Shown here one piece after another: positions 14,599 through 37,928 of a stretch of DNA of 64,000 nt (position 1 is the stretch's first letter; each line of letters begins with the position of its first letter). The notes beneath the pieces are model-generated. The model had not been told where the DNA came from. It did no database searches and saw only the letters and a list, made by a program, of their open reading frames with translations. Source of the stretch: Gammaproteobacteria bacterium (lineage in GTDB: Bacteria; Pseudomonadota; Gammaproteobacteria; Steroidobacterales; Steroidobacteraceae); the NCBI GenBank assembly GCA_021773365.1, contig JAJFKF010000145.1:1-64000 (forward strand). Reading direction: 5' to 3'. Made by a program: the position numbers and the translations under genes.

Positions 14599-15232
14599 CC
14601 GCCCTCGATCATCGGCCTGACCTCACTGCGCAGCGTCTCACCACGAGCGGCTTTGCCCGAGGTGCTGCTCAACGCGATCGTTCATCGCGACTACGCAGTT
14701 CCGACACCGATCCAGATTCGGGTCTATGAGGATCGGCTGTCGATCCGAAACCCCGGGGAGCTGCCGGAGAACTGGACCCAGGCCACCTTGCTGGGTTCGC
14801 ACGCTTCGCGGCCCTACAACCCCGACATTGCCCACGCGTTCTTCCGGGCCGGCGAGATTGAGGCCTGGGGGCGGGGCATGGAGCGCATCTTCGGAGCTTG
14901 CCGGCAGGCTGGCACGCCGGAGCCGCTGCTTCGCCTGGACGCTCGGGATTTCTGGTTCGAGTTTCCTTTCTCCGAGATTTACCTGGGCAGCCTGACTTCG
15001 GGGGAAGAAGCTGGCAGGGGATTGGAGAAGACTACCCAAGAAACTACCCAAGAACAGATTCTTGCCCTCTTGCGCGAGGATTCGACGCTGACCCGAAAAG
15101 TCCTGGCTGACCGCATCGGCATCACGCCCGATGGCGTCAAATACCACCTCGACAAGCTCCGCGATACCGGCCGCATCCGTCATGTCGGTCCGACCAAGAA
15201 GGGCCGCTGGGAAGTCCCATCACCCATGCGAC
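14599..15232 (+). pseudogene. Truncated AlbA-type ATP-binding transcriptional regulator (C-terminal half)
   Basis: An in-frame stop at 14596-14598 is followed by open frame with clear homology from LPEVLLNAIVHRDYA, the HATPase_c_4 motif of the AAA_4/AlbA_2 (Schlafen-like, formerly RecG-like) regulators. GDG-like ATP-lid features (SIRNPGELPENW, EAWGRGMERIFGAC) and a C-terminal winged helix (TQEQILALLREDSTLTRKVL then GVKYHLDKLRDTGRI) are present. The N-terminal AlbA domain, normally 200 or more residues, is missing and no ATG precedes the motif. The 3' end also looks replaced: the frame runs on without stop into sequence antisense to the neighbouring receptor. The exact end is uncertain. A relic cut on both sides. 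Confidence 0.75.
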
Positions 15233-15286
15233 ACCGTCTGAAGAAAGTCTTCATCAAGAAGATCCCTTCGTTCGTTCGCGTCGCAA

Positions 15287-20420: not shown

Positions 20421-20436
20421 TCTTCATTCAAGTCAC

Positions 20437-20990
20437 GACCGAGTAGGCCGAGGGCTTACGCCCCCAGCCCCTCACAGATCCGTGCTTGAAACTCTCGCTT
20501 CACACGGCTCGCGCCTTCCAGTGAACGCTGTCGCGTTCCCCTCGCTCCCAAGAGCTCCTCCCGTTTCCGGTTGGCCCACGGAGTACAGGGTGGATGGCCC
20601 ACTCCCTTCGCTCCACTGGCATTACCCAGCTTCATCACTACTACGGAGTAGTCTGCCCCTGACGATGGCATCGATACTTCCAGCCTCATGTTTCTAACAC
20701 TTGTGCCTTTTCTCTTCACATCCATCTCCAGGTTCACGCGTTTCACACTAATGCCCATGTCGAGTTCATGCCGTCTGTACACCGGTTGCCATCTGGGCAG
20801 TAAACAGGCTCCTTCCAGACTGATCCCACGAACTTCTGACCTCCGTGGTTTTGACAACACTTCTCAAGCTCACGATGCGTCATCGAACGGTTTGCTTACG
20901 CTCATCTCCTCGACACATACCTGACATCCTCAATGGAATGCCTTTTCCGGAGTCGCTCACCACCACGACCCTTAGGCCACAGCAGCACCC
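20437..20990 (-). mobile_element. ORF-less group II intron (5' boundary uncertain)
   Basis: Read on the minus strand, 20510-20477 is an exact 34-nt domain V: GAGCCGTG lower stem with the AGC triad, a 2-nt AG bulge, an upper stem and a GAGA tetraloop. One pair (G3 with A32 where G-U is usual) is off. After a 3-nt linker, domain VI (20473-20441) is a 14-bp stem with a GTAA loop and a single bulged A (opposite plus-strand T20444), the branch-point position. The 3' end should be about 7-8 nt further, near 20437. Some 450-500 bases of structured non-coding sequence lie 5' of domain V, consistent with domains I-IV, but no reverse-transcriptase ORF is present. The 5' end lies between about 20950 and 21000. 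The 134-codon frame through it (20456-20860) is an artefact. Confidence 0.8.
20477..20510 (-). ncRNA. Group II intron domain V (catalytic hairpin)
   Basis: 34 nt, the canonical size. Pairing on the minus strand: bases 1-8 with 34-27, bulge at 25-26, bases 9-14 with 24-19, and loop GAGA at 15-18. All pairs are Watson-Crick or G-U except the G3/A32 mismatch, which touches the catalytic AGC triad and may weaken splicing. Confidence 0.88.
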
Positions 20991-21105
20991 GGCGGTTTGA
21001 GATCAGCTCCTGCAAGCCGAACTCGGGAGGCCTGCTCCCATCATCAGTGCAACACTGAATTGAAGGCCCTTCCGGAAAAGAACCCTTCGTTCATTCGCGT
21101 CGCAA

Positions 21106-24100
21106 TCAAAATCGCTTGCTGAATGAGAGCGAGTAGCGCCGCAGGCGCGCGTCACCATGGGTGCTGTAGCCGAGGCGGCCACTGGCAAAGCCGGATGAGG
21201 CGATGACCGGCGGCAGCGCATTCAACACATTCTGCACCCCGATCTGCAGTTCAGTGCCCGCCAGCCAGCCGGAGAGCCAGGCCGACCCCGGTTGCTCGAA
21301 GCGATAGCTGGCGAAAACGTCGTGATACATCTGGCTGGGAATCATGGATGCGCCCTGCTGGTCCAGGTAGATGTATGCGTAGCCGCCCAACTCTGAAGCC
21401 ACTGAATACGCCTTGTAGCTGTCGTAGTACTGCATGTTCCAGCCCGCAGCCCAGCCACCCCGCTCCCAGGTCAGCCCGCCGTTGTAGCGCATTTTCAGCG
21501 GGCCGGCGTCGTAGCCGACCAGATCGTAGGGCGACGAATCGGCCGTCACCTGCCGCGTCAGATGCGGCTGGTAGGCGCCGAGCAGGTTCGCACGGAAATC
21601 CCCGTAGGCGGTCTCCCAGGTGTAATCCGCTGAAACGTCGAAAACCTCCACCAGGCTGTGGGCAAGGTTCACCGCGCCAAGGTTCAGGGAAATGATGGGT
21701 CCCCCCGTGTAGCCCGCCACCTGGTCCGCCGCCGACAACGGGCCGCGCACGATACGGCCGGGCAAGGCGTCTTCCGCGTCGATCACGGTCTGGCCAGGGT
21801 CTTCGAGAATTTCGCCTGTCTTGCGGATGCGGGTGTAGTCCACCGACAGCCTGAGGCCGGGAAGGGCCCGGGGCGTGAAGATGATGCCCGCCTCGAAACT
21901 CGAGGACTGTTCCGGCCTCAGCGTCAATCCGGAGTCCACCCATTCATCGGCGCTCTCGATGAGCGTATCGCCACGTTTCGGATCGATAAAGTCGTAATAG
22001 ATGAGGTAGGCCGGCTCCTGCACATACGGCGCGATCTGATTGATGGCCGGCGGCAGGACCCCTTCCGCGTAGCTGAAACGAAACGTCAGGTCTTCTACCG
22101 GCTTGTAGCGAAAGCCCAGGGTGTACTGGTTGGCTGAATTATCCTTGATCACGCTGGGCGGCAGATCCGGGAATGGACCGTCGGCCGAAGGTACGTCCAC
22201 GGACGCGTACAGGTCATGCGTGCGCGTTTCAATCGTGTCGTACCGATAGGACAGCTGCAGATCGAGGCCCTGCAATCCGGCTCTCGCGTTCGACGAGGAG
22301 ACCAGCGGTGCGGTGATCTCCGCGTACGCACTGCGTGTCGTGTTGCCCACCGACGGACGAAAGATAAAACGTTGCACGCCCGTAAAGGTGTTGTACTGGG
22401 TTTGCACCGTGTCTTCGGTATCCTCCTTGCGCCGCTCCATCAGGGTTGACAGCATCACCGGCCCGCCGGCCAGCGTCCACACCGGCCCCGCCAGGCGCAG
22501 TGTGGCATTCGAGGTGGCGCTGTTACGGTCGTTGACGTTACCGAAACCACCCGGCACATCGTTGTACAGCGGACTGAAATCCAGTGGATACAGGTTGACG
22601 TCCCGCAGTACCTGCAAGGTGCCGTCATTGATGCCACTGGTTATGGCGTTGGTCGGAAGAACGGCGGGGAGAAAGCTGGACTGCGATCGATTCTGCGATC
22701 GATCCACGCGGTACTCTGCCTGCGCCGTCCAGCCACGGGATAGCTGGATGATGGCCCCACCGCCGAGCTGTTCGGTGAGCACCTTCGAATACCATTGCCC
22801 CAGCGATGGATCGAAGCCCACCAGGGGTACTTGTACGGACACCGCCTCGGTAAAGGGACTGGCCGGACCGGGATTCAGGGTGTAGGTGCCTATCGAAGTG
22901 ACGAAGTTGACCGAGCCGTTATCGTAACGGGACGCGTCGAGAAAGAGATTGATACGGTCGGTCACGTGCTGATTGATATTGATCGAGGCGGAACGGCTCT
23001 CCGGCGTACTCAACACCGCTTGTTTCCGCCCCCTGAAGTCATTCGGCTGATCGAAATTGAACTGTCCGGCGGTGCCCAGGAAGGCCGCACCATTGTCGCC
23101 TCCCGGCCCCCCGTACCCCACCGGGACGGAAGCATGACTGAAACCCAGCGATTGATCGCCATCGACCAGCACCAGGTCGTTGCCGCTCCTGCTCAGGATA
23201 TTGGTGGTGTAGCCGTAGGGCATGGAGAACGAATTGAGAAATGTATCCGGGGCGTTTTCCCGCACCAGCGCCACGCTGCGACTGAAAATGGCGGCCCGGT
23301 CGCCATAGGTCATCGGCTGGCCGTCGTGATAGCTCCCCGTGAGCATGACCTCGGTGCGCCCGCCCCACAGGGCAAAGCCCCCGCTGGCCTCCAGACGCCG
23401 CTGCGAACCCCCGCCGGCAAAGGTGCCGTCGTAGCCCGCCTTCACATCCACGCCGTTGTAGTCGCGCTTGAGGATGATGTTGACCACTCCACCGGTGGCC
23501 CCGCCACCGTAGATGCCGCCTGCCGTGGACGGCAGGATCTCGATCCGCTCCACCGCCGACAAAGGAATGCCGTTGATGTCTGCCTGCGAGAACTGGCCGA
23601 TTTCGGGCACTCGCGGCATGCGTCGGCCGTTGACCAGAATCAGTGTCTGATTGGGCCCCAGGCCCCGCAGGTCGATGGTGCTGGCGGCGGTGTCTGCATT
23701 GCCGACATCCTGCGATTTACTCACATAGGACTGATTCATCGGCAGGCGTGAACGCAGAAGATCTTCGATATTGCGCGCCGGCGCGCGCTTGATGTCCTCG
23801 GCGTCAATCACTACGTAGGGCTGAACATCATCTTCGGTACGGCGGATATCCACGTTGGAGGTGCGGCGGTCGCGCACCAGGATTTCAGGAATGCCCTTTG
23901 AGTTCTGGACATCCTGCTGCGTGGAAGCCGCCGCGAGCTTCCCGCTGCCTTCATCCGCGGCAGCCACAACTGCCGCTGTCCGTGCGGATGGGTTCGCACG
24001 CTGCAATGCCACCCGAAGATCGCCCGTCTCGGCAACCCTGAACGATTGGGCTTCCTTGTCAACACCAACGGACATGATCGTAACCGTGTTGGCATCCAGG

Positions 24101-24372
24101 TACCGGAACGTCAACCCGGTTCCATTCAGCAGCGTCTTGAGCGCCTCATTCGGCGTAAAATCCCCTACCGCACCCTGCGTACGCAACGTGCTGACCGCCT
24201 GCGAGGCATACACAATCTGAAAATCCAGCGTCTTGGCCAGCGCCCGCAATGCGGGCGCCAGCTCCTGGGCCGGAATATTGGTTTGTCTGCGGGCAGACTC
24301 TCCCGCATCTACGGCCATCGATGCCGCTCCGATCATCGCTCCCAACACCACCGCAATCGCTGCAATACGCAT
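21106..24372 (-). CDS. Module 2 TonB-dependent receptor with STN signalling domain
   Basis: 1,088 residues from ATG 24372 (GGGGAGA five bases before). Signal peptide, STN domain (about 30-103; NIPAQELAPALRALAKTLDF), candidate TonB box IPEILV, signature EDDVQPYVVI, plug (LILVNGRRMPRV, IYGGGATGGVVNIILKRDY) and barrel ending YSLSFSKRF. It is most like the module 5 receptor: both have FAGGGSQRRLE and a GSYHD-Q-T-GDR run after the plug. Unlike the other modules it lies on the same strand as, and 87 bp behind, its own fecR and sigma genes, with its own copy of the module motif in that gap. Ligand unknown. Confidence 0.93.
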   Translation of the reverse strand: MRIAAIAVVLGAMIGAASMAVDAGESARRQTNIPAQELAPALRALAKTLDFQIVYASQAVSTLRTQGAVGDFTPNEALKTLLNGTGLTFRYLDANTVTIMSVGVDKEAQSFRVAETGDLRVALQRANPSARTAAVVAAADEGSGKLAAASTQQDVQNSKGIPEILVRDRRTSNVDIRRTEDDVQPYVVIDAEDIKRAPARNIEDLLRSRLPMNQSYVSKSQDVGNADTAASTIDLRGLGPNQTLILVNGRRMPRVPEIGQFSQADINGIPLSAVERIEILPSTAGGIYGGGATGGVVNIILKRDYNGVDVKAGYDGTFAGGGSQRRLEASGGFALWGGRTEVMLTGSYHDGQPMTYGDRAAIFSRSVALVRENAPDTFLNSFSMPYGYTTNILSRSGNDLVLVDGDQSLGFSHASVPVGYGGPGGDNGAAFLGTAGQFNFDQPNDFRGRKQAVLSTPESRSASININQHVTDRINLFLDASRYDNGSVNFVTSIGTYTLNPGPASPFTEAVSVQVPLVGFDPSLGQWYSKVLTEQLGGGAIIQLSRGWTAQAEYRVDRSQNRSQSSFLPAVLPTNAITSGINDGTLQVLRDVNLYPLDFSPLYNDVPGGFGNVNDRNSATSNATLRLAGPVWTLAGGPVMLSTLMERRKEDTEDTVQTQYNTFTGVQRFIFRPSVGNTTRSAYAEITAPLVSSSNARAGLQGLDLQLSYRYDTIETRTHDLYASVDVPSADGPFPDLPPSVIKDNSANQYTLGFRYKPVEDLTFRFSYAEGVLPPAINQIAPYVQEPAYLIYYDFIDPKRGDTLIESADEWVDSGLTLRPEQSSSFEAGIIFTPRALPGLRLSVDYTRIRKTGEILEDPGQTVIDAEDALPGRIVRGPLSAADQVAGYTGGPIISLNLGAVNLAHSLVEVFDVSADYTWETAYGDFRANLLGAYQPHLTRQVTADSSPYDLVGYDAGPLKMRYNGGLTWERGGWAAGWNMQYYDSYKAYSVASELGGYAYIYLDQQGASMIPSQMYHDVFASYRFEQPGSAWLSGWLAGTELQIGVQNVLNALPPVIASSGFASGRLGYSTHGDARLRRYSLSFSKRF

Positions 24373-24436
24373 ATCTTCTCCCCCGCAAATGGCGAGCTGC
24401 ATTTGCTACATGCGTGTTAAGAGCCCTCGGCGCACC

Positions 24437-26140: not shown

Positions 26141-29100
26141 TCAAAACCGCTTGCGCAATGTGATGGAGTAGCGCCGCAGGCGCGGATCACCGAAGAAGCT
26201 ATAACCGCTGCTGGGCACCGAGGTGGCAACGATAGGCGGGCTGGTATCGAACACATTCTTCAAGCCGATGTGCAACTCGGTATCCGAGAGAAATCCAGCC
26301 GTCGCCCCGGCCAGCTCGCCCAGGCGGACGCGGGCGGTGAGATCGTGATAGATCTGCCGGGGAATGCTGGGTGATCCCTGCTCGGTTACGCGGCTTTCGA
26401 TCAACCCCTCGTTCAGCCCAGCGGCATAGATCAGGTAGCTGTGGAAATACTGCATGTTCCAGCCCAGCGACCACAGCGACCGCTCGAAAGTCATACCGGC
26501 GTTGCCTCGCCACTTCATCCGGAACTGATGACCGGCATTATTGATCGGATCAGTGTCGGGACCGAACTGGTTGATGTGATCATCTATATAGGAGCCCAGC
26601 GCGTAGAGGCGAAATGAGCCCAAGGTGGTATCAAACAGATAGTCGAGCTGTACATCCCAGGCACGCACGGTGGTACTCGCGATGTTGATAGAACTGAAAT
26701 CAATCGCAGTAATAGGTCCGGCTGTATAGTTCAGAGGCGGCTCCATATCAGCTTGGGTCAATGGGCCGCGTGTCACCCGATCGCCGAACAGTCCAAACAT
26801 CACTGCGTAATCGAGGATAGTCTGCGCCTGGACGTTGGCAATCTCGTTGTTCTTGCGTATCTCGGTGAAGTCCACCGACAAACGCAGGCCCGGCAGAACT
26901 CGCGGGGTGAAGATCGCGCCCACTGAGAGGCTTTCGGATTTCTCCGGATCAAGGTTGGGGTTGCCGCCGCTGGTGCGGTCGATTCCAGTCAGCGTCATGC
27001 TCGTGCCTCCCCGCTCGGGATCGACCAAACGAACCGAGCCCGTCGAGGTGCTGGGGATGATCTGCGCCACTGTCGGCGGCAGAAACCCCGTGCCAAAGCT
27101 GGCGCGCAGAGCGATATCCTCGATGGGCGCATAGCGTAAGCCCACGGTATAGTCAGCCGAATTCAGCTCAGCGACACTGCGCTCCACGTCGTCCAGTTGG
27201 TCCCGGGGCACAACACCGAGTTCCACACCGTTGATCCGATAGTCGTCATAGCGAACCGCGGCCTGCAAATCCAGCGCATGCAAGCCGGGGCGCGCATTGC
27301 GCGGGGAGATCAGCGGAGCGGTCGCCTCCAATGACAAACTTTCGGCCGAACGCGACCGGTAGGGATAGATGGTTTCCATATATTCCTCGGTCGAGGCATC
27401 CTGCAAGCGCACCAGGGCGTCGTCCGCTTCGGATTGACGGTTCTCGTAGAAGGCCGACAACGTCAGATCCCCGCCCGGCAGCTCCAACACCGGTCCGGCA
27501 AGGCGCAGTGTCGTACTGGTGCGCGTGTTATCGAACGGGCCGCGGAAGCTGTTGGGTGAATCGAGCAGGTAGGGACTGAAATCCGCTGTAGCCACGTTCA
27601 AATCCCGGAAAATATCCAGTTCGCCGGTGAGAAGCGCCGAGAATATGCTTGAGTTGAATATGGGCGAGGTTTCTTCAATCTCACTGCGCGCGCGACTCCA
27701 CGAGTACTCTAGCTGACCCAGCCATTCACCGGGCAGGCGCACGATGAGTCCACCGGTGGCCGCTGTGGTTTCAGAGGTGAAGTTACGGTCGAACTCCAGG
27801 CCCGGCATCGGAAAAGTGACTTGTATGAAATTGTTGAACGGGTTGCCCCCCAGTCCGGGGAACAAATCAATGGAGGTATTGTTCGATCCATACGGCACCC
27901 GCCCTTCATTGTTATTGCGGCTCAGGTCAATAAACCCCTCAATGCGATCGGTGAACTGACGGCGAATATTGGCGCTAAAGGACGTCACCACAGGATTATT
28001 GACGATACCGGATTTCAGGCCCTGAACATCGGCGGGCAGATTGATGTTGTAACTGCCGGCCGTAGCCGCCAGCGGCGCGACGCCGTCGGTGGCCAGGCCT
28101 GCATACCCCAGCGGCACGTGGGCGATTAGCGAGCCCAGCCCCACCGGGGCGCCGCCGTTGGGATCGATCAGCACCAGCTCCGGACCAAAGAAACCGTACG
28201 CCTTGATATTGGTGGTGGAACCCAGTGGCGGAGAGAACCCGCCGGTGAAATCCTCTTGAGTATTATCGAGGTACAGCTCATAGGCACGCTCCACGAAGTT
28301 CCGATCACCCACCAGCAGAGAATTGCTGTCCGAGTAGCTGCCGGTCAACAACACGTTGGTGCGCCCGCCTTCGAGGGCAAAACCCAGCGTGGCATCGAAG
28401 CGCCGCTTGGCCGAATCGGTATCGAAGGTGTTGTCGTAGTTGGTCGAGAGCTCCAGTGCGTTGTAGTCACTTTTAAGGATGATGTTGACCACGCCGCCGG
28501 TCGCACCGCCGCCATAGATACCTGAGGCCGTAGCCGGCAGAATTTCAACGCGTTCCACGGCGGAAAGTGGAATGCCGTTGATGTCGGGCTGACCCAGCTC
28601 GCGTCCGGTGAACACCCCGGGCATGCGCCGGCCATTGACCAGCACCAGCGTCTCATCGGTCCCCAGGCCGCGCAGGTTGATGCTGCTGGTATTGCCATTC
28701 AACAGGGTCTGCTGCGCATTGGTATCCGCGACAGTGTTCATCGGCAGGCGGGTCTTGAGGAACTCCTCCAGGTTCGTCGTCATGGAACGCTCAATCGTCT
28801 CCGCGTCATACACCACGTAGGGCTGCACGTCGTCTTCGGTGCGCTCGATATCGGTGTTGGAGGAACGCTTACCCTTAACCAGCATCTCGGGAATGCCCTT
28901 GGTCGGATTCGGCTTATTCTCTTCCTGACTGCCCGGCTGCCCGGCCTCGGACGTCCCGGCCACATGCGCCAGCCTCATCTGCCTCGCCGCCGGCACGGCG
29001 CGCGAGGTCTGCTGCACTCGGGAAATACGCACGGTATGTTCATTGACGAACTCATAGCGCAGGTCGGTGCCCGACAACAGCCGGCCGAGCGCCTGCTGGG

Positions 29101-36345: not shown

Positions 36346-37810
36346 AAAAAATCATTTAAAGCCTTGGATATTAGGGAATTGTGTTCAGGCAATGCGGTCT
36401 TAAATTGCCAGACAAAGGCCGGTGAGGCCGCGAAAGCTGGTGATTTTAAATGCGTCCCAAAGAGCTTGAGAGCACCCCGCAGCCTGACCTGTTTCGGCTG
36501 AAACTTGAGAACCTGATCGATCTGCGCCACGAGCTTTGCCGCCTGGCCGGACAGATGGAATGGTCAGGGTTGTTGGAGGATTTTGGCGCGCTGTATTCGG
36601 AGAATGGCCGCCCGGGTATTCCCATCCGCCTGATGGCGGGCCTGCACTATCTGAAGCATGCCTTTGGGTTATCGGATGAGGCGGTGGTCAAAGGCTGGGT
36701 AGAGAATCCGTACTGGCAATATTTTTGCGGCGAGGAATATTTTCAGCATCGGCTGCCCATTGATCCATCACAGATGACGCGCTTTCGCGCGCGGCTTGGA
36801 GCGTCTGGCTGCGAGCGGCTGCTGAAGCTGACCATTGAAGCAGGTCTTGGTGCGAAAGCGGTCAAGTCGAGTAGCTTTACTGAAGTGACGGTGGACACCA
36901 CGGTACAGGAGAAAGCGGTGGCTTTTCCGACCGATGGGCGGCTCTATCACAAAGGCCGGGTGTGGCTGGTGCGCCTGGCCCGGCAATCGAATATTCCTTT
37001 ACGGCAGAGCTATCTGCGCAAGGGCAAGCAAGCGCTGTTTATGCATCAGCGCTACGCTGCTGCGCGGCAGATGCGCCGCGCGCGGCGGGAATTAAGACGC
37101 CTGAAGGTGTATCTGGGCCGGGTACAGCGGGATGTGCAGCGCAAGCTGGAGGCTCAACCTGAGACGGTGCGCGCGCGTTTTGCTGAACCCCTGGCGCGAG
37201 TGCATCGCCTGCTCGCTCAGCAGCGGCATGACAGCAAGAAGCTCTACAGCCTGCGCGCCCCGGAAGTGGAATGCATCGCCAAAGGAAAGGCGCACAAGAA
37301 ATACGAGTTTGGCGTGAAGGTCAGCTTGGCCGTGACCCAGCGCGATCATTTCATTGTTGGGGCCATGAGCTTGCCCGGCAATCCCTTCGACGGTCACACG
37401 TTGGAACAGGCGCTGCATCAGGTTAAGCGCCTGACCGGAAAACGCCCCGAGAGATGTTTTGTTGATCGTGGCTACCGGGGGCACAAGGTGAAAAACACCC
37501 GGGTGTACATCGCCGAGCAGCGTCGCGGCATCAGCGCTTCCTTGCGTCGGGCGCTGAAGCGCCGCAATGCGATCGAGCCGGTTATCGGCCATGCCAAACA
37601 TGATGGACTGATGGGGCGAAACTACCTGCTGGGCAAGAGCGGTGATGCCATCAACGCCATCCTGGCCGCCGCCGGGCACAACCTGCGCATCATCCTTCGA
37701 AGGCTCAGGCTTTTTTGGCTCTCGATTATCTATGGCCTTTTCAACCCGCGGCCCTTACAGGCTCTCCAGCCGTCCTCGGCTTGAGCGGAAAACGGGTTTT
37801 TCAGGGTCGA
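36338..37810 (+). mobile_element. IS5-family insertion sequence, about 1.47 kb
   Basis: Imperfect terminal inverted repeats: left TCGTCCCTAAAAAATC (36338-36353) against right, read inward, TCGACCCTGAAAAACC (37810-37795). The flanks are CTAG (36334-36337) and CTAA (37811-37814); both fit the YTAR target of IS5-type elements but are not identical, in line with a deletion or recombination after insertion. One transposase gene fills it. Confidence 0.8.
36450..37784 (+). CDS. IS5-family DDE transposase
   Basis: 444 residues and apparently intact. N-terminal DUF772-type region (GLHYLKHAFGLSDEAVVKGW then VENPYWQYFCGEEYFQ) and a catalytic DDE core: first Asp in VTVDTTVQEKA, second in CFVDRGYRGHKV, Glu in RRNAIEPVIGHAKHDG. 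This layout fits the longer IS5/IS1182-like transposases of Xanthomonas-type bacteria. It lies wholly inside the element. No frameshift is seen, so the element may still be active. Confidence 0.9.
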   Translation: MRPKELESTPQPDLFRLKLENLIDLRHELCRLAGQMEWSGLLEDFGALYSENGRPGIPIRLMAGLHYLKHAFGLSDEAVVKGWVENPYWQYFCGEEYFQHRLPIDPSQMTRFRARLGASGCERLLKLTIEAGLGAKAVKSSSFTEVTVDTTVQEKAVAFPTDGRLYHKGRVWLVRLARQSNIPLRQSYLRKGKQALFMHQRYAAARQMRRARRELRRLKVYLGRVQRDVQRKLEAQPETVRARFAEPLARVHRLLAQQRHDSKKLYSLRAPEVECIAKGKAHKKYEFGVKVSLAVTQRDHFIVGAMSLPGNPFDGHTLEQALHQVKRLTGKRPERCFVDRGYRGHKVKNTRVYIAEQRRGISASLRRALKRRNAIEPVIGHAKHDGLMGRNYLLGKSGDAINAILAAAGHNLRIILRRLRLFWLSIIYGLFNPRPLQALQPSSA

Positions 37811-37928
37811 CTAAATACCCCGGAAGTCTGACGTCAAGATTCCTGGGATCCAAACCCCATCGCCAGGGCAACATTGAACCCACTTCCCGTCCCTGACAAG
37901 CAGAGTCGTATCGTCAGTCGTGCCGCAC

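What the first reader, a model, noticed from the sequence alone, without database searches (positions are those of the whole stretch)
20437..20990. ORF-less group II intron between modules 1 and 2
A canonical 34-nt domain V, a 3-nt linker and a 14-bp domain VI with a single bulged A are present on the minus strand, with roughly 450 bases of structured sequence before them but no reverse transcriptase. Either a maturase elsewhere acts in trans, or the intron is a deletion relic. Domain V has a G-A mismatch in the catalytic triad region. It sits in intergenic DNA downstream of receptor 2, where splicing would be neutral.
Basis: seen in the sequence. Interest (0 to 1): 0.62.

Follow-up and report, generated by a model that had tools for sequence, protein, structure and literature searches.

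The report
Intron homing to receptor stop codons
A self-splicing type of mobile RNA element sits directly behind the stop codon of an outer-membrane receptor gene, and its guide sequence matches the last codon plus stop codon shared by many sister genes, so it belongs to an element family that could spread through a gene family without damaging the proteins.

Summary
Window 21105-20438 (-), 668 nt, is a group II intron with domains I-VI and no reverse transcriptase. Rfam matches D1 (100 bits) and D5-D6 (55.6 bits). 116 of 125 base pairs predicted from relatives alone are kept, 24 of them through compensatory changes. The true start abuts the TGA stop codon of a TonB-dependent receptor (TBDT) gene.

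That position is the real finding. EBS1 (UCAGAA) pairs 6/6 with IBS1, which is the terminal Phe codon plus UGA; its G pairs with both Phe codons, UUC and UUU. Five of 117 TBDT ends surveyed carry intron 5' sequence directly behind the stop: this intron, a decayed IEP-bearing copy (C93), two 5' fragments in the window and one 21-nt shard. Four of these five are at ends that pair 6/6 with this EBS1.

Best reading: an intron lineage that homed to the conserved 3' ends of an expanded receptor family, where insertion leaves the protein intact, and that has since lost its protein. No intact maturase was found in the assembly. The D5 G-A mismatch is a clade variant. Stop-codon insertion has a precedent (Azotobacter groEL); family-wide targeting is the new part.

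The parts
20438..21105 (-). ORF-less group II intron, 668 nt (UUGCG ... CUACUCGGU)
   Evidence: Rfam; R1, R2; boundaries
20919..21039 (-). domain I core matching RF01999
   Evidence: 100.3 bits
20834..20839 (-). EBS1, UCAGAA
   Evidence: exon/intron covariation over 20 introns, own 0.82 vs swapped exons 0.35
20864..20869 (-). EBS2, GCUUGA
   Evidence: own 0.70 vs swapped 0.36; pairs 5 of 6 with its own exon
21106..21111 (-). IBS1, UUUUGA = last Phe codon + UGA stop of the receptor gene
21114..21119 (-). IBS2, GCAAGC (within the Ser-Lys-Arg codons)
20511..20614 (-). shortened domain IV with the stretch that precedes an IEP start and a possible remnant of the IEP's last codons
20477..20510 (-). 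domain V, 34 nt
20441..20473 (-). domain VI, bulged A at 20444
20422..20434 (-). shard in the 3' exon, GACTTGAATGAAG, 12 of 13 like the 5' end of the C93 intron
21106..24402 (-). host gene: TonB-dependent receptor (STN, Plug)
15209..15286 (-). 5' intron fragment directly behind the stop of receptor 18580-15287
   Evidence: no Rfam match
37822..37928 (-). 5' intron fragment directly behind the stop of receptor 41192-37929, cut off by unrelated DNA next to the ORF 36450-37784
   Evidence: R1 15.9 bits, E 0.01, model position 1 at 37928; no group II match in Rfam
26141..26154 (-). unoccupied receptor end that pairs with the intron's EBS1 and EBS2 as well as its own exon does

Best explanation
This is a group II intron, ribozyme core apparently intact, whose IEP was lost by an internal deletion in domain IV. 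It belongs to a lineage that homed into the 3' ends of TonB-dependent receptor genes. Its EBS1 pairs with the conserved terminal Phe codon plus UGA stop, and EBS2 with the Lys/Arg codons before it. Reverse splicing therefore places the intron directly behind the stop codon of any paralogue with that ending, where the protein stays complete whether or not the intron splices. Shown: intron identity, boundaries, EBS/IBS pairing, location, the further intron 5' ends behind receptor stops. Inferred: the homing reaction itself, repeated insertion at one site, and that splicing is now weak or absent because no intact maturase was found.
For: Rfam D1 and D5-D6. Base pairs predicted from 11 relatives without the window row: 116 of 125 kept, 24 compensatory; partner-slid controls keep 42-49. 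EBS1 and EBS2 stand out in a scan of intron positions against 20 exons. The pattern 'stop + intron 5' end' has 4 exact hits in the whole genome, all four at TBDT stops. Of 117 TBDT ends, 5 are followed by intron 5' sequence: 4 of the 36 whose IBS1 pairs 6/6 with this EBS1, 1 of the other 81 (Fisher p 0.03). One random site hits a TBDT stop with chance 1.5e-5. Elsewhere in the clade 1 of 39 copies sits exactly at the stop of an ORF of 60 codons or more. Both long copies here have an intron 5' shard at the start of the 3' exon (p about 1e-4 each with 4 references); 14 other introns have not (p above 0.05 with 18 references).
Against: The C93 copy's own EBS1 (GUUAU) does not pair with its exon, so guide-directed homing does not explain that copy as it stands. 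32 of 36 pairing ends are empty. 9 of 125 pairs are broken, and the termini (UUGCG...GGU) deviate from GUGYG and AY. The 15286 and 37928 fragments are short and have no group II match in Rfam; the fifth case, in C20, is a 21-nt shard. No splicing or mobility data exist.
Confidence: 0.77

Rival explanations
1. The intron inserted once behind an ancestral receptor gene and was copied to the other stops by duplication of receptor modules; no family-wide homing.
For: Three of the five cases lie in one receptor cluster in the window; the occupied genes are clustered on the TBDT tree (2 changes, 3 of 500 shuffles as low).
Against: The gene tree pairs 21106 with 37929 (87/89) and 15287 with C93 (83/59), whereas the post-stop DNA pairs 15286 with 21105 (93% over 28 nt) while 37928 has no comparable match to either; starred branches force at least 2 changes. 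The C93 intron groups with introns of another genome, G379 (100/100), with the window intron outside that group.
Confidence: 0.15
2. A still active ORF-less intron, spliced and perhaps moved in trans by a maturase elsewhere in the cell.
For: Ribozyme fold and EBS/IBS pairing are kept; the review passages I read say bacterial ORF-less introns nearly always live beside related IEP introns (PMC4424553).
Against: No intact group II IEP found in the assembly; only one further intron copy with D5-D6.
Confidence: 0.12
3. The post-stop sequence TGCGACGCGAA... is an ordinary 3' UTR element of these receptor genes, and the intron begins further downstream.
For: The C20 receptor carries only the 21-nt stretch, followed by a hairpin.
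Against: Relatives at unrelated sites have the same 5' module (GUGYG.CACGAA + hairpin), and with the boundary at the stop EBS1 pairs 6/6; 112 of 117 receptor ends lack it.
Confidence: 0.05

Closest known systems
IEP-bearing introns of Paraburkholderia, Azotobacter and Stenotrophomonas plasmids (RF01999-type D1; IEP with RVT_1 and GIIM)
   Same: Homologous ribozyme, highest identity 72% over 434 columns (Paraburkholderia L003); same 5' hairpin module, same EBS positions
   Different: Those read carry a 422-aa IEP (L016, L017) and sit at unrelated sites; the window copy has no IEP and sits at a receptor stop
Azotobacter vinelandii groEL intron (Michel et al. 2007, seen only as cited in passages of PMC4465626; Ferat et al. 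2003 recalled)
   Same: Insertion at a translation termination codon; belongs to introns with a large insertion at the 5' end, and ours has a 5' hairpin module
   Different: One essential gene there; here a guide matched to a paralogous family. I did not have the groEL intron sequence, so kinship is untested
ORF-less bacterial introns (T. elongatus, C. tetani; PMC2882425 and PMC3919590 seen in search listings with the start of the abstract, PMC4424553 in passages)
   Same: Complete ribozyme, IEP lost
   Different: No intact related IEP found here; location at a stop codon
Bacterial class C introns behind transcription terminators (PMC8919778, passages)
   Same: Insertion at a kind of site that is harmless to genes and found many times in a genome
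   Different: Here the site is read as coding sequence plus stop, not as a terminator

Membership tests
Group II intron | Domain V and VI with bulged A | tested here: met
   RF00029 55.6 bits, R2 84.6 bits (the window row is one of the 8 in that model)
Group II intron | Domain I with conserved core | tested here: met
   RF01999 100.3 bits
Group II intron | Secondary structure of D1-D3 kept through compensatory change | tested here: met
   116 of 125 pairs, 24 compensatory
Group II intron | EBS1/IBS1 and EBS2/IBS2 pairing at the 5' splice site | tested here: met
   6 of 6 (one G-U) and 5 of 6
Group II intron | Termini GUGYG ... AY | tested here: inconclusive
   UUGCG ... GGU; in the clade the tail is CUYNNY and several copies start with U
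Group II intron | Splicing by lariat formation | not testable with these tools
   needs RNA
ORF-less group II intron | No RT/maturase between D1-D3 and D5 | tested here: met
   D5 595 nt after the intron start, no IEP match beyond chance
Intron lineage with En-lacking IEP | IEP with RT and maturase domain, no endonuclease | tested here: inconclusive
   met in 2 relatives (L016, L017); the window copy has no IEP
Azotobacter groEL-type stop-codon introns | Common descent with the groEL intron | not tested
   sequence not on hand

The most novel reading that the evidence does not exclude
A group II intron lineage evolved a guide that reads the terminal Phe codon (both UUC and UUU, through a G that pairs with C and U) plus the UGA stop of outer-membrane receptors. 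It thereby turned an expanded paralogous family into dozens of safe homing sites, and hit several of them repeatedly.
Probability: 0.55. Interest if true: 0.66.

Novelty: new variant of a known kind. Interest (0 to 1): 0.5.

Why it matters
Bacterial group II introns must find sites that do not harm their host; known solutions are terminators, attC sites, other mobile elements and, rarely, a stop codon. A guide matched to a codon-plus-stop shared by many paralogues would be a further solution: many sites per genome, protein always complete, tolerant of synonymous change. It would explain how introns persist in expanded gene families and gives a testable targeting rule.

Tried and rejected
Decay read from the D5 mismatch: rejected, 4 of 8 aligned introns share it. 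Looking for an intact IEP in the genome: none. Search for such introns in relatives: a DNA query over 148 genomes found partial matches in 2 genomes other than the window's own; model R1 over 369 class genomes found 28 genomes with 45 places, the window's own genome included. Of the copies read, 1 of 39 outside this genome sits exactly at an ORF stop: Paraburkholderia mobC, L018. Some of those 39 rows have uncertain 5' ends (for example L014, L081, L083, L085, L086 and the second L087 copy). Viral-contig searches with two patterns: 0 hits each. Naming the organism: not achieved; the only named TBDT relatives are two Verrucomicrobiota MAGs at 36-37% identity. The EBS scan was first run on 24 introns with a flaw in missing-value handling; one search repeats it on 20, leaving out L094_4182, L073, L078 and L068. 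ORF-less introns as one clade: rejected, 6 changes on the tree, at least 3 forced. Literature: no paper in the held library holds 'group II intron', 'TonB-dependent receptor' and 'stop codon' together; the library lacks most subscription journals, and a paper I asked for on ORF-less introns (Simon 2008) is not held.

The TBDT census (117 ends) is not complete: 9 more TBDTs known (L022-L029 and L031) were not among the 116 Pfam matches; their ends, read, carry no intron 5' end.

Full report
What is there. On the minus strand, window 21105-20438 is a group II intron. cmscan matches RF01999 (D1-D4-2) at 21039-20919 with 100.3 bits and RF00029 (D5-D6) at 20512-20438 with 55.6 bits. I derived a structure for the first 475 nt from 11 relatives with the window row left out: the window intron keeps 116 of its 125 pairs and breaks 9, and 24 pairs differ on both sides from the nearest relatives. 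With partners slid by 1-3 columns only 42-49 pairs are kept.

Boundaries. Relatives start with GUGYG.CACGAA plus a hairpin, which the window intron shows as UUGCGACGCGAAUGAACG at 21105. In an Azotobacter plasmid a relative splits an IS66 tnpB gene. Reading TACTGGG on into AGCGCAACGG restores a frame that I recall as the usual YWERNGF of that protein, and this puts the 3' end at CUYNNY after D6. A scan of 20 introns against their own and swapped 5' exons then finds exactly two places that fit only their own exon: intron position 267 for exon -1 to -5/-6 (0.82 vs 0.35) and position 237 for exon -9 to -14 (0.70 vs 0.36). These are EBS1 and EBS2. For the window intron EBS1 is UCAGAA, pairing 6 of 6 with UUUUGA (one G-U); EBS2 GCUUGA pairs 5 of 6 with GCAAGC.

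The site. The first intron base follows the TGA of the receptor gene 24402-21106 (STN and Plug domains). IBS1 is therefore the terminal Phe codon plus the stop, and IBS2 lies in the Ser-Lys-Arg codons before it. Because position 4 of EBS1 is G, it pairs with both Phe codons: the receptor 18580-15287 ends in UUCUGA, which pairs without any wobble. The same position in two more receptors of the window is followed by intron 5' sequence: 15286-15209 (93% identical to the window intron over 28 nt) and 37928-37822 (R1 model 15.9 bits, E 0.01 in the window, model position 1 exactly at 37928). A whole-genome pattern for 'stop + intron 5' end' has four exact hits, these three and contig C93; all four follow TBDT stops. 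A census of 117 TBDT ends adds a fifth, a 21-nt shard in C20. Four of the five are among the 36 ends that pair 6/6 with this EBS1, one among the other 81 (Fisher p 0.03). The receptor 29428-26141 pairs as well as the actual host but is empty. Nine further TBDT ends outside the census carry no intron.

Results against. The C93 intron does not pair with its exon by its own EBS1, the receptor sequence before it is a 5'-truncated gene and its IEP lacks residues about 140-338. So that copy is at a receptor stop for a reason that its present guide does not give. 32 of 36 pairing ends are empty. The three small fragments are recognised by position and similarity, not by Rfam (for two of them; the third was not scanned). 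Outside this genome only 1 of 39 copies of the clade sits exactly at an ORF stop, so the habit is local to this genome as far as sampled.

Repeated hits. Just after D6 the C93 copy continues with GTGCGACGTGA, identical to its own first 11 nt; the window copy continues with GACTTGAATGAAG three bases on, 12 of 13 like the C93 5' end. Against random 26-mers p is about 1e-4 for each with 4 reference 5' ends; none of 14 other introns reaches p 0.05 with 18 references, a looser comparison. A second insertion at an occupied site, where the IBS still stands, followed by loss of the older copy, would leave such shards. This is inference.

Homing or gene duplication. On a tree of receptor C-termini the occupied genes need two changes; 21106 pairs with 37929 and 15287 with C93. 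The DNA behind the stops groups otherwise: 15286 with 21105. On the intron tree C93 falls with introns of genome G379 (100/100) and the window intron beside that group (93/97). This favours separate insertions, but copies are few.

ORF loss. D4 of the window intron holds CAACCGGAAACGGGAGGA, identical to the stretch before the IEP in a Bradyrhizobium intron, and GTTCACTGG, like the VHW codons near the end of IEPs, just before D5. An internal deletion of the IEP is the simplest reading. No intact group II IEP was found in the assembly, which is 98.95% complete in 157 contigs; multi-copy introns can be lost in such assemblies.

Placement. It is a member of group II introns by D1, D5, D6, fold and EBS/IBS tests. 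An intron at a stop codon is known from Azotobacter groEL (PMC4465626, passages, citing Michel et al. 2007, which I could not read). New, as far as and my reading can tell, is a guide matched to the shared ending of a gene family.

Noticed in passing
An exact pattern finds two copies each in 2 of 369 genomes (G203, G363), so an ORF-less lineage seems to multiply, perhaps moved in trans.
   Followed up: partly
G000 C90:7830-8558 (L008): An RT-like open frame of 364 codons with a group II RT match (105 bits, below the 300-bit cut-off) in which I see no YADD motif; possibly a decayed or domesticated RT.
   Followed up: partly
G000 C69:5264-5692 (L009): An AbiP2-like reverse transcriptase of a defence type.
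   Followed up: no
window 36450-37784: A 444-aa ORF that I take for an insertion-sequence transposase lies next to the point where the 37928 intron fragment ends; not tested against a family library.
   Followed up: no
whole genome G000: An expanded receptor family: 116 TonB beta-barrel matches in 3.97 Mb; in the window two FecR genes and a sigma-factor gene lie beside the receptors.
   Followed up: partly
L018:2970: In a Paraburkholderia fungorum plasmid a relative sits directly behind the TGA of mobC, with EBS1 pairing to that end.
   Followed up: partly
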